This document shows positions 28,204 to 50,039 of a DNA stretch of 64,000 nt, in pieces. The stretch comes from Bemisia tabaci (taxonomy: Eukaryota; Arthropoda; Insecta; Hemiptera; Aleyrodidae), in NCBI RefSeq assembly GCF_918797505.1, contig NC_092793.1:1798001-1862000 (forward strand). The letters run 5' to 3'. The translations under genes were made by a program, and so were the position numbers. The notes beneath the pieces are model-generated. The model was not told the origin of the DNA, searched no databases, and saw nothing but the letters and a program-made list of their open reading frames with translations. Within the stretch, counting starts at the first letter, position 1; each line of letters starts with the position of its first letter.

Positions 28204-29045
28204 AGTAGGGAGAAAATGATGACTTTGCTCGATAAAAAATCCAACAGCGTTGCATGATGGTGCAGAAAAATACAAATTAAATTACAGTGTTGTATAGGGA
28301 TTATTGTTCAATATGGCAACGCTGTAAAGTAAAAGTATTGCATGTTGCCCCTTCAATAATCGGGTTATGCAATCGTGTAATGTAGCCCCTTCAATCTGCG
28401 GTTTATTTAACTGTGTATTTTTCAAGATGGCGCAGCAGCGTTGCCGGACGGTGGACATAAATAAATGATTTAATTATTGGTGAAATTTTGCAACATCGCA
28501 TTTTACAGTGTTGCTAGATGGGGCGAGAAATTAGTTAATTTTTCGATACAGTGTTGCCAGATTGTGCAAAAAATTCGGATTTTCGGACTTGTAAAAATTT
28601 TCGGTTTCGGAAGACCGTATCTTACAGTATGGGCCTGGTATCGGATACTGTAGAGTAGGGTCTGATTCGGGAAATTGAAAAATTTTCGGAAAATCACCCT
28701 CCTCCGATCCGTTGCGGATCGATGCGATTCTTTTCCACTTTCGAAGATCGGAAAACTGTACTGACCGAATTTTAATACGACTTTTCGTTTCCGAGATTTC
28801 GGACTTGTAAAAATTTTCGGTTTCGGAAGACCGTATCTAACAGTATGGGGCTGGTATCGGAGACTGGAGATTAGGGTCTGATTCGGTAATTTTCATTTTT
28901 TAGTAGTGTGCGCTTGGAAATGCGTACGGGAACCTTATGTTTTGCGATGAGCGACTGGGATTGGGTATTGCAATGTTCAGATTGATGAATCAAATTTTTT
29001 TTTTTTGGGGGTATTTACAGTTACAGTTTAAAACAGTTCGCGTTG
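28204..29045 (+). repeat. left terminal inverted repeat of the Polinton
   Basis: About 842 bp that reappear inverted at 48962-50039. It includes one full period plus part of a 216-bp tandem unit (TTCGGACTTGTAAAAATTTT at 28582 and again at 28798). The inner limit is near CAGTTTAAAACAGTTCGCGTT, directly next to the integrase stop at 29054. It also contains CAAGATGGCGC near 28424. Confidence 0.9.
28582..28900. repeat. 216-bp tandem unit within the left TIR
   Basis: Unit start at 28582 and again at 28798, with the second copy partial. Each carries TTCGGTTTCGGAAGACCGTA and a palindromic GATCCGTTGCGGATC. The right TIR has one more unit. Confidence 0.85.
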
Positions 29046-31360
29046 CTTACTATTTATTCGAAATCCTTACTATCGATCCAACTGCTGTGACTCGCATCCA
29101 GACCCAACCATTTGACAAAGGCCTGGTTTTTCTTGCGACGCAGAATTTTCTCCACCAGGAACGTATCCTTATAGTTGGTGGGTTGGAGTTCTTCGCGGTA
29201 GAATTTTCCTTTGATGATCGTATCGTGCGCGTCTTTCAGATCGTACGTGATCGGAACGGTCGGATTGACGCTGACAATCTTGAAAATTCCCGTGCTCCAA
29301 TTCGGTGTGTATCCTTTCTCGAACATGGCTTTGAGTCTCGAGATCCGGACGTGATCACCGACATTCAGTTTTCGTCTGGCCAAATGTCTCTTTTCAATTT
29401 TACTCAGCGGCGGCCCACGAAGCTTTTGCAGGATCATCGGTACATCCTTTTCGGCAGGGGTCGAGAGGGTTCTCAAGAGCGAACGCCGATTTCCAGGATT
29501 TCATATGCATCGCCTCCTCGCTCGCGAGTTGAGAGGCCTTTTGTTTCGAATGCCCTCTCCGTTCGCAAACCCAAATCTTTTTGTCCGGCGCCCGCTCTTA
29601 GTTCTCGATACCTGAGGCATATCGCGGCGAAAGCGATACCCATCCCAGAACGCGATCGATTAGCCGTCTAATTCGATTGCCCTCAGAGAGGCGATGCCAA
29701 TGACACTCGTATTCATATCCCATCTTGAGAGGCGAATGAAGAACGCCAGTTTATTCCCTCCTTATTCCCTCTCATCGCTCAGTGGTCGCCTGGTCGGGCG
29801 CGCCGCGGTCCGCTGGGCTGCGAATCCTGCATACGGTCCACGTTGACCCATGGTTGACCGTTGAGTCATCCTCCTTGGCCATCCCTCGGCTCCTGCGCTT
29901 CCTGCGGGCTGCACCAGGTCGTCTGAATGCACTACCAGCCGAGCACAGTTCGTTGACACGCTAGTGAGATGAGGGTGAAAACGACGAAACACCCGGACGG
30001 TTAATTTTTTCGTCTTGTGAATTTCTTGACATGTTTCGCTCGGTAACCGATCATTTCAGTTAATTTGTCCACTTAAGCCGCGGCAATTTCTCCCTCTGAA
30101 ATATTGTTATCACACGTTTCCATTAATTTTTCTTCACTATCCCCCCCCCCTCTTCTGGGTTTTGCTTGATTCTCCACCCCCTTCCCCCGTTACCAATATT
30201 AAACGCATCAGGCTATGAAATATGATATTCATGTTCTTAAAATTGAATGCAACTAAATATGCAACTGCAATTCGAATACGTCAAAAACTTTCCTCAAATT
30301 TCCGTCCTTGCCGTGTATCAAAACACGTTTTATCCACCGGTTTTTCATATGTTTCATTGTTTTTTTCCCTTTTTTATTACCTACTCATTTTTCTCTTAGT
30401 CTTTAATTCATTTATCCACTGCTATTCCAACTGAGTATTTTTTAATATTCTTTGGCATTTCATGCATTACTTTTTATTCTAGTTACAATCCTGCAAGTGG
30501 GGAAAGGGAGAACAGGGCTAACAGTAAGCGAAAGTTACTAATCTCAACCAAAAAAAAGGAAAAAAAACCCGGTTTTAGGCAAGAAATCAATTTTCTCTGC
30601 ATTACTTCACCTTGCACTTAGGGAATTGGGCATAAAATTTCCTACCTCCAGCAATCATTATACCTCAAGTCAATTTCAGTACTTAAGCGCTTAGATTTCA
30701 CTTTCCAGAATTTGTAATCGAAAACCCTAAGTACAGTCTCTAAATTTAGGAGCTATAAAGGTTTTTAAGAAATTTTGGATAAACTAGACCACCTTTGGTG
30801 AAGAGACACTATTCCGGTGACAATGGGAGTACACGATTTCTGAGTTAATGATTGGTTCCATAAACGCCAACCATTAGACGGTAAACTCCTTGACAGTAAA
30901 TTCATTAAATCTCTATGAAAAATATGAAGGAAAAACTACGGAGACTTAATTTTCTGTTCATAATGACCACAGATTCCTTGAACATAGCAACTTCGGGGTG
31001 ATCTCTCCTTCCCTCTTAATTCTCCAATTAATGACTGTGGTAAAGGACGTTTCCAAATTTTTTAATTAATTAACGTCACTTCTTCTCAGAGAAATCTGGC
31101 TATTTCTTTATGAAAACGTGGGACAAAGTGTCTTCGTGACTCTCGAATTTAAAAAAATGTACTAACAGAGTCGCACGGCACAAAGTAGGTATACGCTAAC
31201 GCGACAGCTTTGTCGCCCAGAGCGGTCTTGCACTCGAAGTCTGATGAAAAATTTGAATAATTATGAGTAGGTATATTGAAAAAGTATGGTATCGCAAAAC
31301 TCGCGAATGTCTTCAGCGCTTTTAAAATACTTTCTATCACATTCCTCCAATTCTTGTTTA

Positions 31361-31709
31361 GCTTACCGATATACCTACTTGTAATTATATATATTTTTCA
31401 CCAGGATTGCAAGCTGAATCCAAATCCGTTGAAATAGTAGAACATTTTAGAAACGGTAAAGAAGTTGGTCGGCAAATTATCCTCTACCAGTAGAAGGAGG
31501 GTGTCATTAACACATGTCTGACCGCTTTCACGTTTGGCCCACGTTTTGATCAGTAACTTACCGATATAATTACTTATTATTATATATATTACTCATCAGG
31601 ATTGCGAGCTGAATTTGAATCCGTTGAATAAATGAAGATTAGTTAAACTTTAAAAAAATTGGTCCGCAAATTTTCAGCGGCTAGTAGGTAGAGGGTGTCA
31701 TTAACACGG
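31361..31709. repeat. two diverged direct repeats, ~195 bp apart
   Basis: CTTACCGATATA...ATTATATATATT..TCA.CAGGATTGC.AGCTGAAT...AGAGGGTGTCATTAACAC occurs at 31361-31516 and again at 31557-31709. Both are non-coding and lie within the hAT-like insertion. Confidence 0.75.
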
Positions 31710-31910
31710 GTTCCGCCGACGGAGAGAACCCCAAAAGTAAGCACAATGGGAACAATCGCGCGTCGCAGCCGGTCGAGGGCCAGCAGACCGGCGCGGCGCG
31801 GTGGGAAGATCCGGCGGTGCTATTCGAAGAAGCGCCCCCGGACCGTTTGGTGGCCGAACCAAGAAGCAGGAGTTTTCTGAAATTTCTTCTTCCATAAGCG
31901 TCCAGCCCCG

Positions 31911-32021
31911 TTACAAACTAGAGGCTTCAAAGAGACTCATCGATTGCCCCGACTTAAACCGCTGGCCAATGAGCGGGCCAGGAAATGCAACGATGAACCT
32001 CTTTGAAGCCTGTAGTTGGTA
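31911..32021. mobile_element. 110-bp hairpin MITE
   Basis: ACAAACTAGAGGCTTCAAAG near 31914 pairs with the inverse of CTTTGAAGCCTGTAGTTGGT near 32001-32020. The arms are about 30 bp around a roughly 50-bp loop. Confidence 0.65.
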
Positions 32022-32603
32022 TGTGGGCTAGACGCTATACTGATGCGGTATGGATTTGTTTTTCACAAATTTTCGGATTTTTACCACCATTAGTGGCTGC
32101 TCACAAAGCTCATTATAAGTTAAAAAACGGTGAAATTTCGATTTTAAGAGCAACCGAGCGGAGGGACTGGGCATTGCCAAGCGAAATGAGAGTGACTTGG
32201 GAGAAAAAAAAAAAAAATTCTCTTAATGTGCAAGGTATGTGCTCGGTTTGTACACATTTTTGAACATCTAGCGTCCAGTCCCTATCACTCACTAAAATAT
32301 CAAAAATAGACGGTTAAAATGCTCAAACAATCGGAAAAATCACGATCTATTGGCTGTGTGCGCGTCGGGTAAATTTTCTTATCTTTCAAAATATTTTTGG
32401 CTACCGTGGTTTTTTTTTTACATAGAACCATTTAGGACCGTGCAACATTTTTTTTGGTCGATTGAAAAAAATAAGTCCCACCCTAGACACGCTTACACTT
32501 TTCAGCATTCACATCAAAGTGCATCGCTGGTGATTCCGTGCTGAGGAATAACGCCGCATAATCATTTGAGTGATGCCAAATTTCCTCCAAAAGTTTTGAA
32601 TTA

Positions 32604-33499
32604 TAGTAGGGCCCACGAGGGATGATCCCTGAGCCGCGGGTATTTCTTGCAAACACTGGCAGCAGTGAGACACCCCCGTCCGGACCGAGACTGGAGCTCG
32701 CGCGACAATGCCGAGCCGAGCCACAATAGAACCCTAATTACTTACGCGTAATTAACAATATCACCGTCCTACTAGAATGATCCAAAATTTTTTGAAAATT
32801 GCTAAAAAAGTTTTTAGGTAGAGTTTCCTCACTCTCTGTTAAAGCACGAGTAAAAAAAGGCCTCATTTATAAAAATCTGTCAAATAGCAAAGAAGTTACA
32901 GTTCGAGATACTATATGAGATAAATAAAAATTAAACTTCGCTATAAAAAGGAGAAAAAAGGAAAAAATAAAAAGTGTAAATTACAATTAAACATCATTTA
33001 GTTCAGAATTTCACAAGCAATTCAACCATGTAATGGACGAAGAGATTGGGGCAAAATTACAGGAAATTGATCTTTTACGAAAGGGCTTCCTTTTAAGAAT
33101 TTTGACCTGAAGATAGGGGTGGAATAGCGGCGGTTCGCATATAATACCTATTCTACCCTGCTAAGGAAACGCCGTATGAGCCTTTAGCCGATGCCAAACT
33201 TCCGTTGACTAAAAAAGAATTTTCAGGGAAATCAGTGAATACTTTCCCTCCAATTTTTCAGAGAATTTTATTAGCTGTCAGCTCTAAATCATCTGAAAAT
33301 ATTTCAAGAGAAAATATGCCCAATTCTGCTTGAAAATAAGGCATTTAATTGGAGGAAATTTGGCAACTCGCGAATGTTCATACGGCGTTTTTACCCAGTT
33401 TCGTCGATGTGCGTGCTCGATCTCGCAGCGTTGACATTTACATGGTCCATGCGTTTATTCGCCCGATTTTTCAGGGATCATCCTTCGTGGGCCCTACTA
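32604..33499. mobile_element. TA-flanked MITE within the hAT-like insertion
   Basis: The ends TAGTAGGGCCCACGAGGGAT (left) and its inverse near 33471-33499 differ at about one base over 27 bp. TA at 32602-32603 and 33500-33501 is a possible 2-bp duplication. The interior is non-coding. Confidence 0.65.
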
Positions 33500-35351
33500 T
33501 ACCGCCTTAAAATTATTCGAAACTTTAGATCAAATTGCTCATAAAGTTCTCTGAAAAATCAGTAAAAAAATATAGTTGAATTTTCACGATAATCTGCGGG
33601 TCATCAAAGGAAATTTGGCAACGTCTGATGGTTCAATGGTTCATACGGCATTCGTCTGTAGCACGGCAAAATGGGCTATAACATAAGGTGCGAATTTTAG
33701 CATTCCGAGAGGGGTGCGTTTTTCTCTTCATTCATTTTTCGGATGTGTTCAATTGTTCATATTGCTTTAAATGGATTGCATTTTGCAAGAGAGAACCACG
33801 AGCATTCCATGTTTCTAAGATTGCGCAACTATTTTCACCTTACAAATATAAACTGATCGCCTAAATAAGTTCTATCTTTACTCCCAATAAACTATAAATT
33901 CAAGCCAAAAATTACGCTTGTAAATTTAATTTCTTGCATGATTTCAGTGATTTGATATCAAAGAATGTAAGTTCCACAATCCCAGCAATATTGGAATGCT
34001 CTTGATTCCTTTTTGCAAAATGAAATTCAAATAAAATAGCTCAATAAATCTAAGAGGACTAAAGCTTCAGTTAAGAAAAAAAAAAATATAAGCCAATTTC
34101 CTGCTCTTTATGCCGAAATTTTTCAAATGAGCCGAAAATTCGAAGAGAGCCTTCTCTAAAGTACCCTGACAAAAGTAGAAGAAATATGGACATTACATGT
34201 ACCGATCAGCTATGAGGAATAGATGTTTAGACGTGCAGAAGTCAAAAAGCGACAAGCCCACAGTTTACGCACGAATCATGACAGGCGAAAAATAGCCAGG
34301 GTAGAGGACGAAAGTAAAAGGGGAGAACGCATGAGCACAATGCCAAAGTGAAAGGAAGGAGTGATCGGCTGTCGCGGTCCAGCGTGTGCGGACTAGCAGT
34401 GGAGGAAAGAATCCAGGGGTAAAGTCCAGAGCCTTTGCGGGCAAAAACTCAGCCGATCCAGATCAATTCGATCGGAAGCCCCGTGTGCGTCTTTCGAGGA
34501 GGGCAATCGAGATCGGGTTTTAATTCCCTCCTGTCTTACGAGGGGATGCCAATGCGGCCAGAAATTATATCCCATCTCGGGAACTGAACAGTTTGCCCGC
34601 GCTACTGCCTCTCGTTCTTCGAACGAGAACAATAATCGCCCCATTCGCCTCTGAGTTCGGGATTCGGGATCCGAAATTCTTTTACCTGCTCTGGCCTCTT
34701 GATCGAGTATCGCGATCGAAAAGCGACGCTTGGTCGTTCGCGAACTCGGAGGGCGATCAAATTAATTTCAATTCCCTCTCGACCCCTGCTTTTCGGTGAC
34801 ATCGATTGGTTTCATCCCGATGGTGCGATGAACGCTCCCGTTATATTCACGGATGAGTTTCGGTAATAGATCTACCCACTTGTACGATCCTTGCGCGCTA
34901 AACTCTTTCCACATCTTAGTTTTGAGCGTTCGGTTGAATCGCTCCACAATAGAGGCTTTGGTTGTCGAGTACGAGCTGTACATATTGATCTTGTGACGCT
35001 TCATCAATGCTTGACATTTTGAGTTGTAGAATTCCGAGCCCATGTCGACTTGTAAATGTTTCGGCGACTTTCCGGCTGCTTTGAGAACGCGTTGCAGAGC
35101 ATAAGTGACATCCGTGGCCGTTTTCGATTTGAGCTGTTCGGCCCACGCCTTTTTCGAGCACGCGTCGATGACGGTGAGGAGATATCTGTATCTTTTGTTG
35201 ACCGAGGCGTACGGTTGCATCTCGACGAGATCGGCTTGCCATAAATCGAACAATCCGAGAATCCGTACTTTACGACGCGGATAGTTTCGTCGTGCAGGTT
35301 TATGTAGCTCCTCGACGATCCCACGTTTTTCTGCCGACATGATAATTACCG

Positions 35352-35660
35352 TCAACGTCGTCGTCGTCGTCCGCTCTCTCGATTCAAATGCTGTTTCGAT
35401 GCTACTGTTTTAACCAGACGATTGTAAGATTGTTGAAGTTGGTGGATATGCTCCAGACAGTGTTGGCCTAATTTCATAGCTTCCATCCACTTCCGTTCGG
35501 ACCATTGTTTGTTCACCGCATCCTCATCGCTTTCGGAATCTTGCCTGTGACGAATCCGTTTGTTCGATACGATATAATTTCCGTCGGAATCCAGTGAGAA
35601 TCCGTCACCTTTTGGACCGCGGCGGAATTTCGATCGGCCAAAACCGTCCGTGTGACTCAT
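35352..35660 (-). CDS. accessory protein A (102 aa), paralog of the next gene
   Basis: Starts at ATG 35660, and its end overlaps the upstream part of the integrase frame. It begins MSHTDGFGRSK and carries GDGFSLDSDGNYIVSNKRIR, an acidic stretch, and a helical C-terminal half ending in a run of arginines. The same start, core motif and layout recur in the 111-aa gene just upstream, so the two arose by tandem duplication. I do not recognise the family. Its place between the integrase and the acidic protein gene, on the same strand, suggests a virion or DNA-associated accessory role, but that is only inference. Confidence 0.75.
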   Translation of the reverse strand: MSHTDGFGRSKFRRGPKGDGFSLDSDGNYIVSNKRIRHRQDSESDEDAVNKQWSERKWMEAMKLGQHCLEHIHQLQQSYNRLVKTVASKQHLNRESGRRRRR

Positions 35661-35667
35661 CTCAACA

Positions 35668-36003
35668 CTATTTTCCTTTCATTCGATTCACAACCTCTAG
35701 TTGACTGATCCTATTTTCCAGTCGTGATAATTTCGTCTCGAGTCGTTGCGCGATACTTTTGTATTCTTCCATTTTCTCCAAACAAAGCTGTGTCGAATTC
35801 ATAGCTTCCGTCCACCTCGAGTCTGTCCGTTGTTTGTTCACGGCGTCGGTATCCTCTTCGGGATCTTGCAGTTGTCGGATCCGTTTGTTGGATACAAGAT
35901 AATTCCCGTCGGGATCCAGTAAGAAACCGTCTCCTTTGAGACCTTGCTTCGTGTTGCGAACGTAAGTCCCTTTCGATCTTCCAAACCGGTCGGTGTGACT
36001 CAT
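35668..36003 (-). CDS. accessory protein B (111 aa), coiled coil
   Basis: Starts at ATG 36003. It begins MSHTDRFGRSK, followed by GDGFLLDPDGNYLVSNKRIR, an acidic EEDTDAVNKQ stretch and a long C-terminal helix with heptad pattern (LETKLSRLENRISQLEVV). It is paralogous to the 102-aa protein 8 bp downstream. A TATA-like ACTAAATATAGG lies shortly upstream of the start. No enzyme motif is visible. Likely a small structural or oligomerising protein of the element; function unknown. Confidence 0.75.
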   Translation of the reverse strand: MSHTDRFGRSKGTYVRNTKQGLKGDGFLLDPDGNYLVSNKRIRQLQDPEEDTDAVNKQRTDSRWTEAMNSTQLCLEKMEEYKSIAQRLETKLSRLENRISQLEVVNRMKGK

Positions 36004-36022: not shown

Positions 36023-37060
36023 TTAGTGGATGTAATCCGCTTCGCGAAGCTCCTCGACGATACTCAGAATTTCACGATCGTGATCGGTGTGACCAGCTTG
36101 TTTCGAAGCTACAAGTAAAACGAGATGTTGGACCAATTCGTTCGGATCGTCCCAATAGACGAGTTCCCGTTTCGCACGATGAATTTTGATACCGGAGCCT
36201 TTCTTCAGTTTTTTACGCGATGACTTCCTCGTTGATCTCGGAGTCGATGTAGCGAACAAAGGTTTGATGAGATCGCGGTATTTTTGACTGCGGTTCGAGT
36301 TGGGTCTACCGTGTGGATGATGATCCCTCCGATGCGCATTGGTGAGCGTAACTACTCGTTGGAATTTAGCGCGATCATCTGCTGTGTAATTACGCGGATG
36401 TTTCTTAAAAAGGAGCTCCAAGAACCCGGGTGTCGGTTCGAACACCTCATCGCTACCGTCCAAGATTAGTCGTCCGTCCGAATCGAAACTTATGGTTCGG
36501 TTTCCGATGAGAAAGTTTCCGTTGATCGCTTTCCGCACACCATACGCGGGATCGGATTGTTTCGGATGTTTTTCCAGATAGTCCAAGTAGAATTGTACGT
36601 TCGGGGCAGTGATTGTGTCTCGAGAATCGACGTCGTCGTCTTCCGAGCGACCCGTTGTTTGTTCTTTATCCGTTGCGTCTTGGAGCGATTCATCATCATC
36701 ATCCTCCTCCTCGTTTGAGTTGTTATCATCATCATCATCATCATTGTTCATATTTTTCGGTGATCCGAACGAAGCAAATAAACTATCAACAAACATTGTT
36801 TTATCTTTCGTTTCCGATTTTGAAGGTTCGATCTTGGTTTTCTTTTCCTGAGGAGCAGCAACAAGTGCGGGTGTTGACGACGAGACAGTTTTCTGCAACG
36901 CTGCGAGCGGATCTGTCAACGGTTTGAAAACTTTCTTCAACGTCACCTGAGCGTCCGCCTCTCCGGTGCGAATGGTATTTAACTTCCGTTTGATATCTTG
37001 ACGGATTTTATCGATACTACCGTATTTCTGAGCGATCGTCGACAACGATAAGTTATCCAT
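36023..37060 (-). CDS. acidic accessory protein (345 aa), DUF8207-like C-terminal region
   Basis: I chose ATG 37060, because the frame opens further up only on a TTG at 37069. Residue numbers here count from that upstream codon. There is an acidic run of D/E/N around 108-129, then a conserved-looking region from about 160: NGNFLIGNRTISFDSDGRL, TPGFLELLFKK, TLTNAHRR, and a C-terminal YWDDPNELVQHLVLLVASKQ plus a helix. I associate this region with the uncharacterised DUF8207-type proteins of insect Polintons, from memory and unverified. The start overlaps the ATPase end by 8 bp, implying tight co-expression. Function unknown; a virion component is plausible. Confidence 0.75.
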   Translation of the reverse strand: MDNLSLSTIAQKYGSIDKIRQDIKRKLNTIRTGEADAQVTLKKVFKPLTDPLAALQKTVSSSTPALVAAPQEKKTKIEPSKSETKDKTMFVDSLFASFGSPKNMNNDDDDDDNNSNEEEDDDDESLQDATDKEQTTGRSEDDDVDSRDTITAPNVQFYLDYLEKHPKQSDPAYGVRKAINGNFLIGNRTISFDSDGRLILDGSDEVFEPTPGFLELLFKKHPRNYTADDRAKFQRVVTLTNAHRRDHHPHGRPNSNRSQKYRDLIKPLFATSTPRSTRKSSRKKLKKGSGIKIHRAKRELVYWDDPNELVQHLVLLVASKQAGHTDHDREILSIVEELREADYIH

Positions 37061-37759
37061 CTTGTACAATATAAGTATCGAAACCTTTCCGGTACCTTCC
37101 CTCGTTCTTATTACTATCTTTATCGATGACTAAAAACCCGTACTTGTCCTGCCAGCACACCGAGCAGATGTGTCTGAAATCTTCGAACGTGAAATCTGTG
37201 TTGACGTGATCGTCGTAGATGTGTCGCAAGTTTGTATTGTCCTGTTTGAAAACTACGAGCAGGTTAGCGTTATCGCGAATCAATTGTTTCGGTATGCGAG
37301 AATAAGTTTGACACAAGTAGAAACTATCGACCGAGCTATGCCTTCCCATACTAAATAATCCCGCATCGCATTTTGTTTGTCACAGGCGACATCATCGAAA
37401 ATAAAGACCGAGTCCGATGCGGCATCGTTTGGTGGAACAATCTCGGCCGTGTCCGAATAGACGTTGTATCCGAGACCGTCGATTCCGTCGAATATCTGAC
37501 GCAGTTCTTCGTACTTGGGTTGGAACGGTGTCTTGGAGTACAAGTACACGTTGCGGAACTTCAATCCGTTCGGATGTTGTAGCAAGCAAACCATCACGTT
37601 TGTTTTACCGCAGTTGGACGGTCCGGCGACAATGCAACGGATACTATCCGGTAACAGTTCACTGTGTCGTCGTCGTCGTTGTCGTCGGTTTTCATTTTGC
37701 TTCTTCCGTTTGTCGAGGTTCGGGACTCGCAATGACTTTCTTTGCTTGACGAGTCGCAT
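37053..37759 (-). pseudogene. genome-packaging ATPase, frameshifted
   Basis: A P-loop ATPase of the FtsK/HerA-like packaging family, expected to pump DNA into capsids. The first frame (37280-37759) starts at ATG 37759. It has a very basic N-terminus, Walker A AGPSNCGKTN (about 45-54) and Walker B SVFIFDDV (about 117-124). After RDYL near 37350 the coding potential moves to a second frame, 37053 to about 37349. That frame continues the ATPase with FYLCQTYSRIPKQLIRDNANLLVVF, shortened here to its key strings YSRIPK and NANLLVVF. A single-base shift therefore breaks the gene. It diverges from the PLA2 gene across a 77-bp spacer. Confidence 0.9.
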
Positions 37760-37836
37760 CGTATTCGTTCCCTATTTTATCGGACAGTTATTTTTTTACT
37801 TCTCCGTATAAATAGTATGGACATTTTCGTCAGAGT
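37760..37836. promoter_or_regulatory. divergent promoter region between ATPase and PLA2 genes
   Basis: Only 77 bp separate the two starts. On the plus strand GTATAAATAGT (37806-37816) lies 20 bp before the PLA2 start. On the minus strand GATAAAATAGG (37771-37781) lies just upstream of the ATPase start. Both are TATA-like and very close to the ATGs, so leaders must be short or starts shifted. An initiator-like TCAGAGT occurs at about 37830. Confidence 0.6.
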
Positions 37837-38583
37837 ATGTCACCGAGAAGATTATCAACTTGCAGCAAAACCAATCGAGGACGTGGACTGTTAAACTCGT
37901 TGATAAATTCACTACCGTTCGAACTACACTTACCGGGCGACTACAGGTACTGCGGACCGGGCACTCGCCTCGCAGAACGATTGAAACGCGGAGATCCGGG
38001 TATAAATCCGCTCGACGAAGCTTGCAAGTCCCACGACATCGCTTACAGTAAGACCAAAGACACCACCGAGAGGAACAAAGCCGATCTCATACTTGCGGAC
38101 AGAGCTTGGGAACGTGTGAAAGCGTCCGACTCATCGTTGGGTGAAAGAGCGGCAGCATACGCCGTAACGAACGCTATGAAACTCAAAGCCAAACTCGGAA
38201 TGGGACTAAACAAGACGGTGGCAGCGAAAAAACCGAAACCTAAGAAGAAGAAGAGAGCGTCGAAGAAGACGAAACCGGTGGAGCGGTCGATCGAACGAAT
38301 CTTGGCTCTCCCAAAGATGGGTGCCGGGGCGTCGAAAACGAAGAAGAAGAAGAAACCGGCGGAGCGAATCTTGGCTATCCCGAAGACGGGTGCCGGAGTC
38401 AAGAATCTCCTGACGAGTATCGGTCTGGCCGCGCGAACAATCACACCGGTAGCGAAAATGATCAAGACGGTCATCGACGGATCTTTGAAGAAGAATGTAC
38501 ACCTCGGTGAAGGATTGTACTTGCGACCGTACCGTAAAGGTTACGGACTTTACTTGAGACCTTACCGAAAGAATTTAAACTGA
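37837..38583 (+). CDS. PLA2-domain/basic core protein (248 aa)
   Basis: The N-terminal domain is phospholipase A2-like: calcium-loop-type YCGPGT (38-43) and the catalytic HD of EACKSHDIAY (66-67). This is the arrangement seen in the parvovirus VP1 PLA2, which serves membrane breaching during entry. The middle is strongly basic, with lysine runs and an internal repeat ERILA(L/I)PK(M/T)GAG at about 153 and 176. The C-terminus has a hydrophobic helix and a repeated GLYLRPYRK (226-234, 237-245), reminiscent of small basic core proteins of adenovirus type. The frame is intact. It heads the plus-strand structural block. The PLA2 assignment is strong; the core/DNA-binding role of the tail is inferred. 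Confidence 0.88.
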   Translation: MSPRRLSTCSKTNRGRGLLNSLINSLPFELHLPGDYRYCGPGTRLAERLKRGDPGINPLDEACKSHDIAYSKTKDTTERNKADLILADRAWERVKASDSSLGERAAAYAVTNAMKLKAKLGMGLNKTVAAKKPKPKKKKRASKKTKPVERSIERILALPKMGAGASKTKKKKKPAERILAIPKTGAGVKNLLTSIGLAARTITPVAKMIKTVIDGSLKKNVHLGEGLYLRPYRKGYGLYLRPYRKNLN

Positions 38584-38606
38584 TCCGTGAGCTACCGCGC
38601 CGAGCG

Positions 38607-39691: not shown

Positions 39692-39703
39692 GACCGCTAA
39701 CTT

Positions 39704-39904: not shown

Positions 39905-39911
39905 GAACGAG

Positions 39912-41135
39912 ATGGAAGCTTGGCGACAAGAGATCATCGAATACGGATACATCCGTTTCGGTCCGGTCGACGAACGGCGTGGAAACAACGATTCGATCCG
40001 GTTCACCCCCGATACCCACGGCCTGATCACCGTGCCTCAAGATTCGAGGATCTTCATGCGTTTAGAAGTGAAACTCGAGAAAAATCCTGGAGCCGCCGCA
40101 GATGCTGCGAAACCTAAAGTCAAGTGGGCTAACAATTATCCCCTGCACTTGTTCGACCGTATGCAGTACAAAGTGAACGGGACGGAAATCGATAGCATGC
40201 AGTGTGTCGGAGTGACATCGACCGTGAAAAATTATCTCACATACACTAGAGCGGAAACCGCGGGACTCGCAACTTCCGGGTTTTGTGACATCACTCATTC
40301 ATGGAGCGAATGGGATATGACAACGTTGGATGAAACTCAGTGCGCTGTCGTTCCGTTGTTTTCACTCAGCGGATTCGTAGTACATTTCAAAGACGTTCTA
40401 GTCAGATGATCGCAAGAGTTGATCCTAGTGCGCAGTGGTACGGATAAGAACGCATATTATATCACCGACGCGGCGACCGCGGACGGTTACACCATCAAAT
40501 TTAAAATAATCGAAATCTATTGGGAGATTCCCGTCGTAAAATTCACATTGGAACTGGAAAAACAAATCTTGCTCAAGATGAAGAAGAACGACAAGATGAG
40601 TTTCGGTTACATGAATTGGGAATCGCACGACATCCCGGGGATTTTCCCGACCAAGACGTTCAAATGGAGCGTAAGAACAACCAGCAGGCACAAGCCCAAA
40701 TTCGTGGTGTTGGTATTTCAAACGGATCGACGGGACAATCACCTGAAGGATTCCTCTCGTTTCGACCATGTAAATGTGCGCTCGGTCAGCGTTCAAATCG
40801 GTGAGCGTCGGTTTCCTCAAGTTGATACGATCTACGATTTCCCGACTATGGATTATAATCACGCCTACCTGAACTACACCGATTTTATGAGAGACTACTG
40901 GAAAGGTGAGAAACTCTGCGAGCCAGCTATGTTGATGGAAAATTTCAAAGATCGCGCGACTTTTGTCACCAAATGCGTTCAAGGTGAAGATCTAAAAACA
41001 GCTCCGGTGGATATCACGTTGACCGTTGTGGTAAAAGAGAATTTCCCGGCCAACACTACAGCCCAGGTGATTCTGATCACGCCTGTGAAGTATTCGTCCG
41101 AACTACTGCACGGAACCGTGAGGCAATTGGATTGA
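39912..41135 (+). pseudogene. major capsid protein, interrupted by an in-frame stop
   Basis: The major capsid protein of Polintons is a double jelly roll that forms the hexon-like shell. The frame runs 39912-41135 (about 408 codons) and is broken once by TGA at 40407-40409, with coding continuing in the same frame. Recognisable parts: EYGYIRFGPVDERRG, FTPDTHGLITVPQDSRIFM, WANNYPLHLFDRMQYKVNG, then YMNWESHDIPGIFP and a C-terminal VVVKENFPANTTAQVILITP. Position after protease and penton, and size, match the family. Below the stop, no frameshift is needed. It is either a single nonsense mutation or, less likely, a readthrough site. Confidence 0.85.
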
Positions 41136-41564: not shown

Positions 41565-41574
41565 GTCGTCAGTT

Positions 41575-41905: not shown

Positions 41906-42472
41906 TACTACTCTTATATTAGTATCGGGGTTATTCCTTTGTTCGTCTGCCACGATAATTTTCTGCTGCTCTTGCATGATTTCAGTTTTGAAAAATTCCC
42001 GATAAAAGGATTCCGACAACCACATACACAATCGGAATGCGTTCGACATAGCGCAGAATGGATGTACTAAAGGACACGTATATGCTGTCGTCCAACGAGC
42101 CAATAGTCGCAAGGACGGACAATCTTAAGTGTCCAAATTTACAACGATACATTTTTCCGGCACAAAACGCTTGATGAAATCTCGTTTTTGTTCACCTTTA
42201 ACATAAAGTACATCGTAGTGGTTCCCGATGCGATTCATTTTTGAAGTGAATTCATCGTACTCGAGAAACCCGCTTTCCCATTCCAAGTGATGATGATTGC
42301 GTGTTAACCAGTTGTTTGTCACAACGTCTTTAGCGCTCAATTTGCTCCTCGGGAACGGAGGTTTGAATAAATAGAGTTCAGTTTCAGTACACTTCATACC
42401 CACAAGACCAAACTCTTTGACGATTAAATTTCCTTGGCTCCAAAAACCTTGTACATTGAGACAAGCCATCAT
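41888..42472 (-). pseudogene. unknown ~195-codon gene with an in-frame stop
   Basis: Starts at ATG 42472. The frame is interrupted by TAA at 42125-42127 and then stays open to 41888 in the same frame. The first part contains YLFKPPFPRSKLS, a W-rich centre (NNWLTRNHHHLEW) and VLYVKGEQKRDFI. The second part has CPSLRLL, C..H and a CAMSNAFRLCMWL string. Together this pattern (VKG.QK, then CPSL, then a cysteine-rich end) recalls an uncharacterised family I know from insect genomes that may have an RNase H-like fold; that is recollection, not proof. GTATAAATAGT lies at 42551-42561 upstream, inside the polymerase 3' end. Confidence 0.6.
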
Positions 42473-42550
42473 TTGTTCGTTTCGTTAGTTACACTTTTAC
42501 TACTTTCAAATTCGAGGTTTCTTAACTGACGGTTCTCCAGAATTATTTAT

Positions 42551-42561
42551 ACTATTTATAC
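42551..42561 (-). promoter_or_regulatory. GTATAAATAGT promoter motif
   Basis: Exact minus-strand copy, inside the last codons of the polymerase gene, about 79 bp before the ATG (42472) of the next minus-strand gene. It is followed by a second TATAAATA string. Confidence 0.65.
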
Positions 42562-43230
42562 GAGGTTGTTTAACAGCGAGGATTTTTCTCAACTCGGTCT
42601 CGGCTCCGCAACTTTCATCCACCATGCAAGGATCTTTGTTGTCACGATGACCCCAAGGAACAGTGCTAACACCGTCTTCTAAAATACAACGTTTATCGTC
42701 TAAGCCGGAGAGGGTTCTTTTTGTAGTTTCGAAGGAGTATAGTTGGTGTTTCCGCGCCCCGATCCTACGCATCGAGGCGGTCATTCTCGAATCAGGATCC
42801 TTTAATACTGTGAGAAAATTGGCAAAGTTTAGCGATCTTACCACTGGTGTTGATATCCCTTTTGCCCTTTTCTCTGTTTCCCCGTCGCTAAAACGATACG
42901 CATACATCTTGGGTCGCAGTGCGACAAACTCAGCAATGGGTATTCCACCCGTTTCATCCTTAAAACTACCCATTACTTTACGGTTTGTCGCGCTGCGACA
43001 TTGATGACCTTCTGGGAAGTTGGAGGTGTCGTACAAGTGTAGATCTGACATCATATCATCGTAGACGTTCGGTGTAGTCAACTCGTAAATGAACGAGTCC
43101 GTATCCATATAGAGAAGTTGAACTTGGTCGGGATTGTACTTTTTAAGCATGTGATTATAGTGGAATTGATACATGTGTACTTTACTCAGATCTAAGATTG
43201 AAAAACCAACAATCATTGGTCTGTCTATGA

Positions 43231-43831
43231 CAAAGACATAAAGACGGAGCACTAAAAGCAAAAAATGAAGCTTCTAGAGCTTCTTTTCAACCACCTCTAC
43301 TATTGGCTAGAGGATTGGCGGCGAAATCGGGACAAGTTTGAATTCAAATGTAGGGCGGGAACTAATAAATAAAATTGCGGAAACAAAGTATTTTAGGTTG
43401 ATTTTTGCCCAAATTCAGGTACACACTCATATTTTTTTAACTTTAGGTTAGTTTCAGTCCGTCGTCGACCGATTAATTTCATTTGGGAGTAACGTTGATC
43501 TAGAACTGTAACGGCCTGTTTGAACCTGCAGAACCACCATGAGCAGAAGAAAAACTAACTTTATCTGAGATTACTGCCTGTTACCGAGCAAAAGTAGGTG
43601 TATTATATTAGGACGCAGACCGAACTTTCTTAGTATATTCGTTTTAGGAATTTAAAATACGTTTCAAAGAAGAAATGTGCAAAAATCAAGAGGACAAGTT
43701 CAAATCAAATTTCCGTTTGCCGCCATGGATTCCCGCGCTCATTTACACACTCACACAAGCGCGCAGCGCCGAACCTAGCTTCACTTTTTCCCCGTGTTTT
43801 TAGATACGAGCGCTCTGTCTTTATGTCTTTG
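43231..43831. mobile_element. 601-bp MITE inserted in the polymerase gene
   Basis: Ends CAAAGACATAAAGAC(G/A)GAGC are inverted. GTCTATGA at 43223-43230 is duplicated at 43832-43839. The 8-bp duplication and CA-starting ends suggest a hAT-type (or P-type) MITE. Element plus one duplication is 609 bp, a multiple of three, and the polymerase frame is the same on both sides, but stops inside the element end the first part. It contains no gene. Confidence 0.9.
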
Positions 43832-46800
43832 GTCTATGACGACCTCTGTTCTCCGTAAATGGATTGCTACCAATTCTTCTGCGAAAATCGTGCGATCTAA
43901 GAAATCGACCCGTGAGATGGCTTTCAGTATCTGTCTGCTGTTTGTACCCAATTTAATATTCTTTCGCTTCAACGGGTTCTCGATAAATTTTCCGTAGCAA
44001 GCGTTGCTGCACAGTTTCAGGAGCGTTTGGTGGAACGGATTCGTAGCGTCCCGTCTCAACCGGGCGTTCAGCTCGATGAAGGGTGCCAAGAAAGGAGCCT
44101 GACGGAATTTGATGGCCCGGTTGACGCGCAGGAGTTTTAATCCCTGACCGAGCGCTTCTTTCAATATTAAGTAGTGGATAACATAGTTGTTTTTATTAGC
44201 TAGAGTCGTCAATAGTTTCGTATATTTCCCCGCTCCCGATGGTGGTATTTCGTTCCGGCACAAGAACGGAAGGTCCTTGTGCAGGTCGTGGAGGTGTTCT
44301 GGATATTCAATATCTACATCGAGTATGTACCCGAGAGGAGCATCGTCGGGATGGTTGATTATAGTTTTCGCCAGAGTTAGCAACTCTTCTCCTTCCGGGA
44401 CCCAAGTGTAGTTATCGTGGGGTAGATGCTTTCTCATGGTGTGTGCATAAAGTGCCGTCACATCCAAGTATTGTAAATAGTTCACCGGTTTTTTAGGATC
44501 AAACTGATCCGGTATCAAAGGATTGTTTGCCAGAGCGTGCCGTTTCACCACCTGTGTTATCCCACCTCGGATCGAGCTCATAATCATGAATACCATATCC
44601 ATATCATTGAAGAGTTGAATTTTCACATTAGTTATTTTTAAGAAGGCGTCGAAAGCGAAACCGGGTAGCGTTAAGTAGTTGCCACAGTCCAAACCATAGT
44701 TTTTCATCCCAAAGAGTCGGAACTCCTCGAACACATCGCTGAGGAGGCACACATCGAGTCGCAAGTAGAAATCTGAATACTCGCCGAGATTACGGATATT
44801 GAAAGTTTGCCAAACTTGGAGAAACCTTTGGTATTCCTCTTCGGAGATGTCCGTTTGAGTCAGGGTGTTGAAGAAAGCCTCTCGCGGTGGTGGACGCGGC
44901 TCGTTCAGCTTGGCCGGATTGTCAACGTAATCGTACGGGAACGGAGCTTTCCGACAAACCATATCGAACTCATTGTCTGTGCGAGTGAGCTTCCTCGTGC
45001 GAACGAAAGATTCGCGCGGGATCGTCCGAACCAGTTTATCCAACGACGCGGGGAGGAAACGGAACGAGTCGATGAACTTGATCGAAAACCTGTTACCCAG
45101 ATGGACCGTCATGCTGATGTAATTTCCCTCCGTGTGTGGTATTATGTCGACGCGATGAGGATACTTGTTCAGAGCCAGCACTCCCTCGTGGAAATCATAA
45201 CTACCACCATTGTGCAGGACGACTCTAACACATTTCTCATGTCGGAAAATAAGATTGCAATTTGAACATAGCGCCTTTCGATAATTGGACCCTGTTTTCC
45301 CTCCCGCTCTCTTTTGATGGTCATGATCCCTTACCTTTACGATACCTGGTTGTGAGAAATCCACCTCGCAATGTCCACACCTATTTTCCGCTTCAAATGA
45401 GGCCCGATCTTCATGTGTCATGATTATTTTTCCCTCTTTGTCGTTGTAACTCTTACTGATTCTTCCTACCCGAGTAATTATATCGTCCAGAAATTTGATA
45501 TGTGCTTCTTCGCCACGGTATAGTTTCGGTTCCGTCATTTTAAATTCGGGATCCTCCGTGACGAGGAGATAAGCGTAAGAATTTGAGATGTGCCGTCTAT
45601 ACGCAGACGCTGGATGCTCCGAGTCACCATTAAGTTGTTCTAAGTAGGCTTCAAAGTCTGCGTAAATTACGTAATTATGTTGTATTTCCTTATGGTGATT
45701 TTTGAACTTGAGGTATCGCTCGTCGGGAAATGAAGCTAGAAATGCGTCTTTGCTGACTAAAGAGCAAAGAACTTTATGTTGATTCAATTGCTCCATCGAG
45801 TACTTGTGCGTAAAGCATTTCTTGTAGATGTAGATACGATTTGCATGTTTTGTCAACTGTTTTCGTACAAGTTGTTCAAAGTTCTTGATCCAGCAATAAT
45901 GGTAACTGAAAGGTACGGGGGTTGAGAGATATAGTAGGTCGGTGTGGTCCTCTTTTTCCGGGTCGGCAACTTTAATTGGGTAAACTGTATACTTTTTCTT
46001 GTTGGACACCAAACTCTCATGGAGCCCAAATACCGAAACCGATACGTTGTCCCTTTTCTCGAATTTGATAATATCATCTATGCTCGTGGGGAATCGAACG
46101 ACCGAGAAATCATAATGATGGAGTATATCTACATATTTAGCCGGATCATATTTATGCTTCTCTTCCTTCGGGACGAACTTTGCCAACATTGCGAAGAAGA
46201 AACAATCGTTATATTCACCGTTATTTACATTGACAACATGTTTCGTTGAAAATGACACCTTAACATAGGTTCCTCCTCGATGTAACGCGTAATAGCGGTT
46301 GACACGTAGCTCCATACCCTGTATCTTCTTCAGCACCCACCCGGATCCGTTCATGTGAAAATCGAATGACTCTTTATTGATCTTGGCCCTGAACTTTTCA
46401 TAATACTCGTCCAGATCCGTTGACGCGAAAACAGCTTCGTTTTTAGTCTTGAATTTTTTCAACTGCATTCCTTCCTTGTCCTTATCGTCAGCTTTCTCGT
46501 ATTCTGCGTAAACTAGTATATTTACCTTCAATGCCTCGTCGTTGAGTTCTTCTTTAATTTTTCCAATCACGAGGTCTTTAGCTGATAGTAGGTAGTCATC
46601 GATGATGAGAATCTCCGGTTGGAGGTTCGTGATGAAAAATGTTTTCAACCTACTTTGACAAGCAGTCTCAACTTGAACAATCGGTACTTTAGTCTCAAAC
46701 AAATTTCTTATGTGACTTGCAGATTCTTCATGTTTTTCTCTTTTATGGTATGAGATCTTGCACGTGTCACAATATTCTTGATTCTCATCGTTGTTGTCAT

Positions 46801-47082
46801 CGGTAGGTGATGAGGTGTCCTTCATGGTGGACATCTTTTCAATATGTTCGGGAGATTGCTCATGATTCTCTCCCTCTGCATAAAACTCATCACAAAGATC
46901 ACAATGGATGAGCACATTGTGCTCCTGTTTAATATGCGTTTCATCGTTGATACCCTCCTCCTTCTTAATTTGTTCCGCACAGTGTTCGTGCTTTCACCTT
47001 GTTTATAAAATTCATCACAAATATCACATTGGATGAAAGTTTCAACAATCTGTTGTGTTTGTTCTTGAGCAGCCATGATAAA

Positions 47083-47940: not shown

Positions 47941-47986
47941 GTCGAGGAAGTGTGATCGATCATTTCAAAACAAGAACTCGTCAAGT

Positions 47987-48349
47987 ATGGACGCTCCAAC
48001 CTTCAAATCACAATCGATTAGAGCGATGAACACCTTGGACACGGTATATGAGGCTCTCTCTTTCAAGATTCCAGGAATACGAGCAGAGCTTTTGAACAAG
48101 TTTGCCAGACTCCTTTTTCCTGACAAGTTGTTCCACCATCTTAAACTCAGCTCAATAGACACTTCCGATCCCGTCGGGTGTTATGGGTTAGTTGAGATAA
48201 CGGAAAGATTTTGCCATCTCCTAGAACGTGTCGCAGACGAGCATGAAATAATGTACTTCTTAAAGCAGGGGTACAAGAAAGTAGACGAACGGGACTGGAA
48301 GATATGCAGACTTTTGAGTGCGATTCGCATAGTATTATACACCAGATAG
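47987..48349 (+). CDS. unknown helical protein (120 aa)
   Basis: I chose ATG 47987, since the open frame begins further up only at a GTG that overlaps the TATA motif. The protein looks all-helical and compact: FKIPGIRAELLNKFARLLF, VEITERFCHLLERVADEHEI, KVDERDWKICRLLSAIRIVL. There is no catalytic motif, signal peptide or membrane segment. A death-fold or Bcl-2-like helical bundle is conceivable, since related viruses carry apoptosis modulators, but nothing in the sequence demonstrates it. Well-placed promoter motif, intact frame. Confidence 0.7.
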   Translation: MDAPTFKSQSIRAMNTLDTVYEALSFKIPGIRAELLNKFARLLFPDKLFHHLKLSSIDTSDPVGCYGLVEITERFCHLLERVADEHEIMYFLKQGYKKVDERDWKICRLLSAIRIVLYTR

Positions 48350-48379
48350 AGGAGAGCGGCTCTCTATAGTAAAGATTTC

Positions 48380-48390
48380 GTATAAATAGT
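48380..48390 (+). promoter_or_regulatory. GTATAAATAGT promoter motif
   Basis: An exact copy 35 bp before ATG 48426, serving the membrane-protein gene. It lies 31 bp after the stop of the 120-aa gene, so the two genes have separate promoters. Confidence 0.75.
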
Positions 48391-48425
48391 ATGCATTCTC
48401 TTCTCAGTATCGCAAGGAAAAAATC

Positions 48426-48761
48426 ATGATTGATAAAATATTTCTCATCACCATCATCATTGCTGTTGTTGGAGTGAATTCCACAACGGTAGCGGAAAAC
48501 TCATCCGAAGCAAACATCACAATGTGCCCGGTCTGTCCGGAAATCAAATGCGCACCCTCTACCTTGACGGACGTTCTTCTATTCATCTTGAGTTTACTGG
48601 CGCTTATTTGCTCCGCTCCGTACCTGTACTCTAAGTACATATCATCCGACTGCAAGTTCCGTTTTATCAGGATGGCCCGGAAAAATAACAATCGGAAAGT
48701 TGATGATATAAGTGATGATTTAAAGTTCGGAGAAGGAGAGGGAATCGATGTTTGTGGTTGA
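48426..48761 (+). CDS. probable type I membrane glycoprotein (111 aa)
   Basis: ATG 48426. The N-terminal 17 residues are hydrophobic (IFLITIIIAVVGV), a likely signal peptide. The short lumenal part has three N-glycosylation sequons (NST 18, NSS 25, NIT 30) and a CPVCPEIKC cluster. A transmembrane helix follows at about 48-70 (DVLLFILSLLALICSAPYLY). The tail has a basic segment (RMARKNNNRK) and an acidic end. The topology is that of a small envelope-type or host-membrane protein. No family is recognised. It is the last gene before the right repeat array; frame intact. Confidence 0.75.
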   Translation: MIDKIFLITIIIAVVGVNSTTVAENSSEANITMCPVCPEIKCAPSTLTDVLLFILSLLALICSAPYLYSKYISSDCKFRFIRMARKNNNRKVDDISDDLKFGEGEGIDVCG

Positions 48762-48772
48762 CAACCCTCACG

Positions 48773-48968
48773 TTTTTAGAACGCGCACGTTTTCTGAACG
48801 TGCACGTTTTCTAAACGCGTTTGCGTTTTCTGAACGCGTTTGCGTTTTCTGAACGCGTTTGCGTTTTCTGAACGCGTTTGCGTTTGCGTTTTCTGAACGC
48901 GTTTGCGTTTGCGTTTTCTGAACGCGTTTGCGTTTGCGTTTTCTGAACGCGTTTGCGTTTTCTAAACG
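48773..48968. repeat. CpG-rich tandem array next to the right TIR
   Basis: About nine units of GAACGCGTTTGCGTTTTCT (19 bp). Three are lengthened to 25 bp by an extra GCGTTT, and the first two are variants (GTGCACGTTTTCT). It abuts the inner end of the right TIR. There is no counterpart at the left end, where the integrase stop lies directly inside the TIR. Confidence 0.9.
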
Positions 48969-50039
48969 CGAACTGTTTTAAACTGTAACTTTAACTGTAA
49001 ATATCCAACAAAAAAAAAAAATAATAAAATTTTTTGATTCATCCAACTGAATTTTGCAATATCCAATCCCAACCGCTCATCGCAAAACACAAGGTTCCCG
49101 TACGCATTTCCAAGCGCACATTACTAAAAAATGAAAATTACCGAATCAGACCCTAATCTCCAGTTTCCGATACCAGCCCCATACTGTAAAATACGGTCTT
49201 TCAAAGCCGAAAATTTTTACAAGTCAGAAATCTCGGAAACGAAAAGTCGTATTAAAATTCGGTCAGTACAGTTTTCCGATCTTCGAAAGTGGAAAGGAAT
49301 CGCATCGATCCGCAACGGATCGGACGAGGGTGATTTTCCGAAAATTTTTCAATTTCCCGAATCAGACCCTAATCTACAGTATCCGATACCAGGCCCATAC
49401 TGTTAGATACGGTCTTCCGAAACCGAAAATTTTTACAAGTCCGAAATCTCGGAAACGAAAAGTCGTATTAAAATTCGGTCAGTACAGTTTTCCGATCTTC
49501 GAAAGTGGAAAAGAATCGCATCGATCCGCAACGGATCGGAGGAGGGTGATTATCCGAAAATTTTTCAATTTCCCGAATCAGACCCTACTCTACAGTATCC
49601 GATACCAGGCCCATACTGTAAGATACGGTCTTCCGAAACCGAAAATTTTTACAAGTCCGAAAATCCGAATTTTTTGCACAATCTGGCAACACTGTATCGA
49701 AAAATTAACTAATTTCTCGCCCCATCTAGCAACACTGTAAAATGTGATGTTGCAAAATTTCACCAATAATTAAATCATTTATTTATGTCCACCGTCCGGC
49801 AACGCTGCTGCGCCATCTTGAAAAATACACAGTTAAATAAACCGCAGATTGAAGGGGCTACATTACACGATTGCATAACCCGATTATTGAAGGGGCAACA
49901 TGCAATACTTTTACTTTACAGCGTTGCCATATTGAACAATAATCCCTATACAACACTGTAATTTAATTTGTATTTTTCTGCACCATCATGCAACGCTGTT
50001 GGATTTTTTATCGAGCAAATTCATCATTTTCTCCCTACT
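48962..50039 (-). repeat. right terminal inverted repeat of the Polinton
   Basis: About 1,078 bp, inverse of 28204-29045. It is longer because it has one more 216-bp tandem unit (TTACAAGTC at 49217, 49433 and 49649). The inner edge is CAGTTTAAAACAGTTCGCGTT read inward. TSD CCAGTA follows at 50040-50045. Confidence 0.9.

What the first reader, a model, noticed from the sequence alone, without database searches (positions are those of the whole stretch)
28204..50039. Complete-ended Polinton/adintovirus-like element with exact TSD
Both ends, a 6-bp duplication (CCAGTA) and the full replication/morphogenesis gene set can be read directly. The accessory gene set (two tandem paralogs, acidic protein, polyQ protein, helical protein, membrane protein) is little described.
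Basis: partly seen in the sequence, partly recalled or inferred. Interest (0 to 1): 0.85.

Follow-up and report, generated by a model that had tools for sequence, protein, structure and literature searches.

The report
Broken Polinton provirus in whitefly
This is a virus-like Polinton (adintovirus relative) lodged in the whitefly genome, with both ends and its insertion scar intact but at least four core genes broken; it belongs to a large family of copies that crowd on two chromosomes and carry small genes resembling the neck of a bacterial-virus tail fibre.

Summary
The ends are real: a 21,836-bp element (28204-50039) with 689-nt inverted repeats, 99% complementary, and an exact 6-bp duplication CCAGTA. 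Repeat copies elsewhere in the genome show the unoccupied site. It is a Polinton/Maverick of the eupolintovirus (adintovirus) kind in Bemisia tabaci, where Maverick elements are already reported. The 'full gene set' does not stand: integrase is split by a 5,334-bp hAT-like insert, PolB by a 601-bp MITE, the capsid gene has an in-frame stop and the ATPase a frame break. This copy is a fossil. Its family is large: 82 near-full-length capsid matches at 85% or more. Two points go beyond routine. The tandem paralogs share a motif with T7-type phage tail fibres (profile score 43.1; best of 200 column shuffles 21.5), followed by a long predicted helix: candidate virion fibre or cement proteins. And the family sits almost only on two chromosomes (56 of 67 placed capsid matches; all 34 placed ends among the 40 scored), unlike other Polinton lineages there (7 of 24). 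That bias is unexplained. New member of a known kind.

The parts
28198..28203 (.). left target-site duplication CCAGTA
50040..50045 (.). right target-site duplication CCAGTA
28204..28892 (+). left terminal inverted repeat, begins AGTAGGG
   Evidence: 6 differences in the outer 680 bases
49351..50039 (-). right terminal inverted repeat; a 216-bp tandem repeat spans 49141-49662
29054..29454 (-). integrase C-terminal part with chromodomain-like end (Chromo E 8.6e-4, below Pfam cut-off)
29455..34788 (.). 5,334-bp hAT-like insert inside the integrase gene; 15-bp TIR CAGGGGTCGAGAGGG, 8-bp TSD CTTTTCGG (29447-29454 and 34789-34796)
   Evidence: the name hAT rests on TSD length and TIR form only, no transposase seen
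34789..35409 (-). integrase catalytic core (rve, PF00665 E 1.9e-14; the scanned ORF piece runs from 34771, a few codons into the insert)
35352..35660 (-). tandem paralog 2 (102 aa), fibre-motif protein
35668..36003 (-). tandem paralog 1 (111 aa): motif shared with T7-type tail fibres, then a predicted helix at residues 54-109
36023..37069 (-). acidic protein (348 aa), no Pfam family over its cut-off
37053..37771 (-). packaging ATPase in two frames (37280-37771 with P-loop; 37053-37379 with weak Pox_A32 match E 0.0017): frame broken
37816..38583 (+). phospholipase A2-like virion protein (PF08398 E 6.1e-11)
38538..38981 (+). adenain-like cysteine protease, inferred from place and motif; Pfam Peptidase_C5 only E 0.18
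38909..39691 (+). penton / minor capsid protein, assigned by place in the gene order; no family hit
39701..39904 (+). 67-aa open frame with a run of 12 Q
39891..41135 (+). double jelly-roll major capsid protein (PF21738: 8.2e-12 and 1.3e-29 for the two pieces), interrupted by an in-frame stop at 40407-40409
42125..42484 (-). 119-aa open frame, no Pfam family
42506..43230 (-). PolB C-terminal part
43231..43831 (.). 601-bp MITE inside PolB; TIR CAAAGACATAAAGAC, 8-bp TSD GTCTATGA (43223-43230 and 43832-43839)
43832..46993 (-). PolB N-terminal, exonuclease and palm part; far N-terminus also out of frame
47987..48349 (+). helical accessory protein (120 aa); one database relative, 92% identical
48390..48761 (+). 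accessory protein with hydrophobic stretches, likely membrane
   Evidence: read directly

Best explanation
The stretch is one integrated, now inactive copy of a Polinton (Maverick; family Eupolintoviridae, formerly Adintoviridae) in the whitefly Bemisia tabaci. A linear copy with inverted-repeat ends was joined to chromosome C1 by an rve integrase, which duplicated 6 bp of target (shown: ends, duplication, unoccupied sites; inferred: the enzyme). Related copies presumably multiplied by protein-primed replication and may have been packaged in double jelly-roll capsids (inferred from the genes). This copy carries a hAT-like insert in the integrase, a MITE in PolB, a stop in the capsid gene and a frame break in the ATPase (shown). 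The two tandem paralogs most likely make a small trimeric fibre or cement protein held to the capsid by a short motif of the kind found at the neck of T7-type tail fibres (motif shown; trimer and place in the virion inferred, about 50%; the confidence below is for the identity and the broken state).
For: TIR and TSD; TSDs in sister copies; shared ends in 36 of 40; unoccupied sites, with joined-flank scores of 65-82 at four places against a maximum of 56.5 for 200 shuffles of the right flank. rve 1.9e-14 and capsid 8.2e-12 / 1.3e-29. PolB: B. tabaci relative 92%, Ladona dragonfly adintovirus 38%; predicted fold (pLDDT 81.4) matches phi29 polymerase E 1.9e-11 and adintovirus PolBs. Host: the top PolB relative is named B. 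tabaci and lies on a contig of 79,695,644 bases, exactly the length of C2 of the window's genome. Insert boundaries with 8-bp TSDs. The MITE is a family with 40 scored full-length matches at 99-100%, the window's own included.
Against: The large PolB ORF has no Pfam polymerase hit of its own; the assignment rests on relatives and fold. Protease and penton were assigned mainly by motif and gene order, and the ATPase only by P-loop and a match under cut-off (45). Stop and frame break could be sequencing or assembly errors, which I could not check against reads; two insertions with TSDs are unlikely to be. TIR divergence could be lowered by gene conversion, so it is not a firm age.
Confidence: 0.93

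Rival explanations
1. The element is a complete, functional provirus and the gene breaks are assembly or base-calling errors.
For: TIRs only 2 differences in 377 and 6 in 680; many sister copies keep a long capsid frame, 53 of 82 with at least 400 aa open and no stop in the matched part.
Against: Two of the breaks are whole transposons with their own inverted repeats and 8-bp duplications, one of them a high-copy family. No single base error makes these.
Confidence: 0.04
2. The tandem paralogs are not virion proteins; the T7-fibre-like motif is chance or convergent, and they are coiled-coil proteins of another role.
For: Short motif (about 40-58 columns); Pfam Phage_T7_tail only E 0.0076, under its cut-off, while a leucine-zipper family (CLZ, 5.3e-4, 3 of 8) scores better and dCache_1 is hit by more members (7 of 8, 0.01); the PHROG family hit by most members (phrog_30017, 7 of 8) has no known function; phage tblastn E only 0.1-0.8; the genes lie beside the integrase, not in the capsid block.
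Against: PHROG tail-fibre families are the top hits for the window protein (3.1e-4, 3.8e-4); profile comparison P 2.6e-6, score 43.1 against a maximum of 21.5 in 200 column shuffles; motif half more constrained than helix half (dN/dS about 0.25 against 0.73).
Confidence: 0.4
3. The crowding on C1 and C2 reflects duplication of chromosome blocks rather than many insertions.
For: One pair of nearby ends on C1 shares 37 bases of flank; copies on short contigs repeat each other.
Against: Of the 40 ends scored only 4 pairs share flanks; 3 of these are between unplaced contigs, and TSDs differ between copies.
Confidence: 0.1

Closest known systems
Polintons / Mavericks (class Polintoviricetes)
   Same: size, AGT-type inverted-repeat ends, 6-bp TSD, rve integrase, protein-primed PolB fold, packaging ATPase, DJR capsid
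   Different: this copy is broken in four core genes; carries tandem fibre-motif paralogs and a helical and a membrane protein of unknown role
Adintoviruses (Eupolintoviridae), e.g. Ladona dragonfly adintovirus
   Same: PolB 36-38% identical over most of the piece; chromodomain-like integrase end
   Different: only distant named relatives in the search made; hexon not compared with adintovirus references
Maverick elements already annotated in Bemisia tabaci (PMC9143410, passages)
   Same: same host; its table has a Maverick row beginning 6723, 28, 51 (I read 6723 as copies; column heads not seen)
   Different: the passages I saw do not describe gene content, breakage or chromosome placement
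T7-type phage tail fibre, N-terminal region (Pfam PF03906)
   Same: motif of the form LD..GN....(K)RI..L.....D.DAVN
   Different: paralogs are 102-111 aa, too short for a receptor-binding head of known kind, in a non-tailed animal virus lineage

Membership tests
Polinton/Maverick | terminal inverted repeats with AG(T) ends | tested here: met
Polinton/Maverick | 6-bp target-site duplication | tested here: met
Polinton/Maverick | rve integrase | tested here: met
   PF00665 E 1.9e-14; gene split by an insert
[quoted passage not shown]
   fold match to phi29 polymerase E 1.9e-11; relative P0002 (86% and 75% identical to the window pieces) hits PF03175 at 1.1e-24; the window ORF itself has no Pfam polymerase hit
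Polinton/Maverick | double jelly-roll capsid protein | tested here: met
   PF21738 8.2e-12 and 1.3e-29, with an in-frame stop
Polinton/Maverick | FtsK-like packaging ATPase | tested here: inconclusive
   P-loop seen directly; Pox_A32 E 0.0017, under cut-off
Polinton/Maverick | adenovirus-like protease and penton | tested here: inconclusive
   Peptidase_C5 E 0.18; penton no Pfam hit; gene order fits
Adintovirus (Eupolintoviridae), as defined in PMC11071296 (passages) | integrase with C-terminal chromodomain | tested here: inconclusive
   Chromo E 8.6e-4, 19.6 bits against cut-off 25.1
Adintovirus (Eupolintoviridae) | PolB with N-terminal OTU-like domain | tested here: inconclusive
   C238 and H339 invariant in 28 of 28 aligned PolBs, as a Cys/His protease pair would be; no OTU hit in Pfam for the PolBs scanned, the named adintovirus included; none among the 50 PDB fold hits listed
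Adintovirus (Eupolintoviridae) | PolB and hexon recognisable against adintovirus references | tested here: inconclusive
   PolB half met: Ladona dragonfly adintovirus 38%, adintovirus fold hits; hexon not compared with adintovirus references
T7-type tail fibre | homologous N-terminal tail-attachment domain | tested here: not met
   only the motif at the end of that region is shared (58 columns); the domain before it has no counterpart in the 111-aa protein
T7-type tail fibre | homotrimeric fibre on a virion | not testable with these tools
   monomer prediction only: helix 54-109, motif low confidence

The most novel reading that the evidence does not exclude
This insect Polinton family carries a doubled gene for a miniature capsid fibre that uses a T7-tail-fibre-type neck motif to dock on the virion, so animal polintons and tailed phages share an attachment module. 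Separately, the family inserts into or survives in a few blocks of two chromosomes that other Polinton lineages in the same genome do not favour, perhaps through its chromodomain-like integrase end.
Probability: 0.3. Interest if true: 0.65.

Novelty: new member of a known kind. Interest (0 to 1): 0.4.

Why it matters
How Polintons attach to cells is poorly known, and for vertebrate Mavericks virions have not been observed (PMC8097293, start of abstract in the listing). A doubled, constrained gene with a tail-fibre-type motif is a concrete candidate for a surface protein. Bacteriophage-like fibres are reported in protist polinton-like viruses (PMC12220804, passages); among the papers listed by two searches (25 rows shown) I saw none on a T7-type motif in animal polintons, which is a narrow check. 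The strong chromosome bias of one Polinton family, against the spread of others in one genome, makes target choice versus survival testable.

Tried and rejected
Considered and rejected: a functional complete provirus (whole transposons sit in integrase and PolB); an intron in PolB (the gap is a MITE with inverted repeats and an 8-bp duplication; 40 full-length matches at 99-100% scored, the window's included, of 1,084 candidates); crowding through block duplication; crowding in gene-poor blocks: kinase exons are not depleted there (11 of 48 against 25% expected; several of these exons belong to the same gene). The MITE is somewhat enriched in the same blocks (8 of 12), which points to a generally permissive compartment. 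The blocks were chosen after seeing the Polinton data, so the family's own within-block p value is no independent test.

Led nowhere: IMG/VR scans with the capsid piece and with the paralog alignment found no relative; PDB sequence searches of PolB and ATPase pieces gave nothing useful; PHROGs gave only a weak polymerase hit for the PolB C-terminal piece (5.9e-4). Genome searches for the helical protein and for the hAT-like insert did not complete; the membrane protein was not searched. Two papers sought by id are not held.

Corrected on re-reading: my pasted capsid list (and the notebook entry) missed one full-length match on C1 (86%, two stops). The counts here are those.

Searches for print. 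Only listings were seen, except for passages of PMC9143410, PMC6413925, PMC11071296, PMC4028283, PMC8097293, PMC12220804, PMC12451622 and PMC11071308.
Full report
What was checked. The element 28204-50039 (21,836 bp) has inverted-repeat arms of 689 nt that are 99% complementary and the 6-bp duplication CCAGTA on both sides. The outer 377 bases of the arms differ at 2 places and the outer 680 at 6. A 216-bp tandem repeat spans the inner part of the right side (49141-49662).

Host. The window lies on C1 of a 609,955,014-base assembly of 151 contigs. The best PolB relative is a Bemisia tabaci protein on a contig of 79,695,644 bases, the exact length of C2 here. The host is therefore Bemisia tabaci.

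Sister copies. A search with the outer 377 bases scored 40 of 520 candidates, so copy counts from it are lower bounds. Eleven presumed pairs were examined: 7 have exact 6-bp duplications (the window's included), 3 agree at 5 of 6 bases, and 1 is not a pair. For the 10 real pairs the two outer 377-base ends differ by 0-3.5%; over 680 bases 4 of the 10 differ by 9-11% with many gaps, probably because the inner repeats differ. Thirty-six of 40 ends begin AGTAG.

Empty site. The right flank is part of an interspersed repeat (40 scored of 421 candidates). Six places were fetched with it, one being the window itself. In all five others the left-flank and right-flank matches lie next to each other without the element; I aligned three of them (L032 at two places, L033, L034) across the junction. 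The joined 60+60-base flanks align at scores of 65-82; 200 shuffles of the right flank reached at most 56.5. The target bases themselves have diverged between repeat copies, and L034 has extra bases to the right of the junction, so this is a paralogous, not an allelic, empty site.

Genes and breaks. The integrase core (rve 1.9e-14) and its chromodomain-like C-terminus (Chromo 8.6e-4, under cut-off) are separated by a 5,334-bp insert with 15-bp inverted repeats and an 8-bp duplication. I call it hAT-like from those two features (recalled), not from a transposase. PolB is cut by a 601-bp MITE with an 8-bp duplication; 40 full-length matches at 99-100% were scored, the window's included, out of 1,084 candidates, and 5 of 6 checked (window included) have exact 8-bp duplications. 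A PolB relative aligns on both sides of the MITE, residues 66-1114 and 1111-1351, and the far N-terminus is also out of frame. The capsid gene gives two pieces in one frame (8.2e-12 and 1.3e-29) parted by a stop at 40407-40409. The ATPase is in two frames. The PLA2-like protein is clear (6.1e-11); protease and penton rest mainly on motif and gene order.

PolB fold. The piece upstream of the MITE was predicted with 28 aligned sequences (mean pLDDT 81.4). It matches phi29 DNA polymerase (E 1.9e-11). Among viral models the best are densovirus PolBs (E 8.9e-44), with adintovirus PolBs at 1.3e-40 and 2.8e-32. Cys238 and His339 are invariant in 28 of 28, fitting the OTU-like domain described for polintons (PMC11071308, passages), but no direct OTU match was obtained.

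Tandem paralogs. The two small proteins (52% identical) and six database relatives share a motif. Against PHROGs the window protein's two best families are tail fibre proteins (3.1e-4, 3.8e-4); 6 of 8 members hit phrog_2710 and 5 of 8 phrog_6518, while the family hit by most (phrog_30017, 7 of 8, best 0.0074) has no known function. Pfam Phage_T7_tail is hit by 6 of 8, best 0.0076, under its cut-off; a leucine-zipper family scores better in 3 of 8 (5.3e-4) and dCache_1 is hit by 7 of 8 (0.01). In 50,697 phage records a search with one relative (P0061) found 24, of Vibrio (19) or Pelagibacter (5) phages; of the 20 listed, E 0.1-0.8, 19 are annotated as tail fibre and 1 as hypothetical. Comparison with single phage fibres gave P 1.1e-4 and 7.8e-5. 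Profile comparison with nine T7-type fibre N-termini gave P 2.6e-6, probability 89%. The score of 43.1 compares with a maximum of 21.5 in 200 column shuffles and 11.4 for the reversed alignment. The model shows one helix at 54-109 (mean pLDDT 89-98 for residues 61-110) and a low-confidence motif; pTM is 0.42. Between the paralogs dN/dS is about 0.25 in the motif half (51 codons) and 0.73 in the helix half (47 codons). In the host genome 137 of 150 matches scored (of 319 candidates) have no stop inside, by my count, and the tandem arrangement recurs. I read them as candidate capsid-surface proteins, comparable to the coiled-coil 'Cah' class of PMC11071296 (passages), with a fibre-neck-like motif.

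Family size and placement. The second capsid piece matched at 150 places scored out of 197 candidates. I tallied 82 near-full-length matches of 85% or more (at least 90% of the query; shorter matches left out) and 25 matches of 31-38% from other Polinton lineages. Of the 82, 53 have an open frame of 400 aa or more without a stop in the matched part. On the ten long contigs 56 of 67 are on C1 and C2, which make up 28% of the genome (binomial p 5.9e-21; near-identical neighbours were counted as they stand). The other lineages have 7 of 24 there (Fisher p 2.1e-6). Of the 40 TIR matches scored, 34 lie on C1 or C2, 6 on short contigs and none on C3-C10 (counted). For comparison, MITE matches are 13 of 41 on C1 and C2, the window's own included, the right-flank repeat 18 of 40, and kinase exons 48 of 136. 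Within C1 and C2, 52 of 55 copies (window left out) lie in four blocks covering 25% (51 of 54, blocks chosen after seeing the data); kinase exons 11 of 48; MITE 8 of 12. Flanks differ between nearly all ends: 4 sharing pairs among the 40, 3 of them between unplaced contigs that look like assembly duplicates. I cannot explain the bias. Targeting by the integrase, local re-insertion and better survival in some chromatin remain open.

What is known. Maverick copies, with activity put at 4-4.8 and 1.5 million years ago, are reported for B. tabaci (PMC9143410, passages), and piRNAs from Mavericks too (PMC6413925, passages). Most vertebrate Mavericks are degraded (PMC8097293, passages). A broken Polinton in this insect is therefore expected. 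The family Adintoviridae is now Eupolintoviridae (PMC12451622, passages). The points I have not seen elsewhere are the fibre-motif paralogs and the chromosome bias; my searches for them were few.

Noticed in passing
G000 C1 35-45 and 84-92.3 Mb; C2 29-41 and 67-79.7 Mb: The window's Polinton family crowds in these blocks (52 of 55 C1/C2 copies, window left out), while kinase exons are not depleted there (11 of 48) and other Polinton lineages are spread over chromosomes. Blocks chosen after seeing the data.
   Followed up: partly
window 43231-43831: A 601-bp MITE with 15-bp inverted repeats and 8-bp duplications; 40 full-length matches at 99-100% scored in the host, the window's included, so recently mobile.
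   Followed up: yes
window 29455-34788: 5,334-bp hAT-like insert with no long ORF and further internal repeats (a 155-base direct pair at 77%, a 31-base inverted pair); its genome copies could not be searched.
   Followed up: partly
window 50051 onward and about 28014-28199: The element sits inside a high-copy interspersed repeat, 86-87% similar matches on many chromosomes.
   Followed up: partly
window 3186-4157 (-): 323-aa ORF with helix-turn-helix matches (HTH_29 2.8e-7, over its cut-off; HTH_32 1.1e-7, just under), perhaps a transposase relic.
   Followed up: no
G000, capsid matches at 31-38% identity: Further Polinton lineages, many of the 25 matches with capsid frames of 401-442 aa, some in groups of equal score at many places.
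   Followed up: no
contigs C28/C33, C34/C64, C45/C53: Identical or near-identical ends and flanks on pairs of unplaced contigs suggest assembly duplicates.
   Followed up: no
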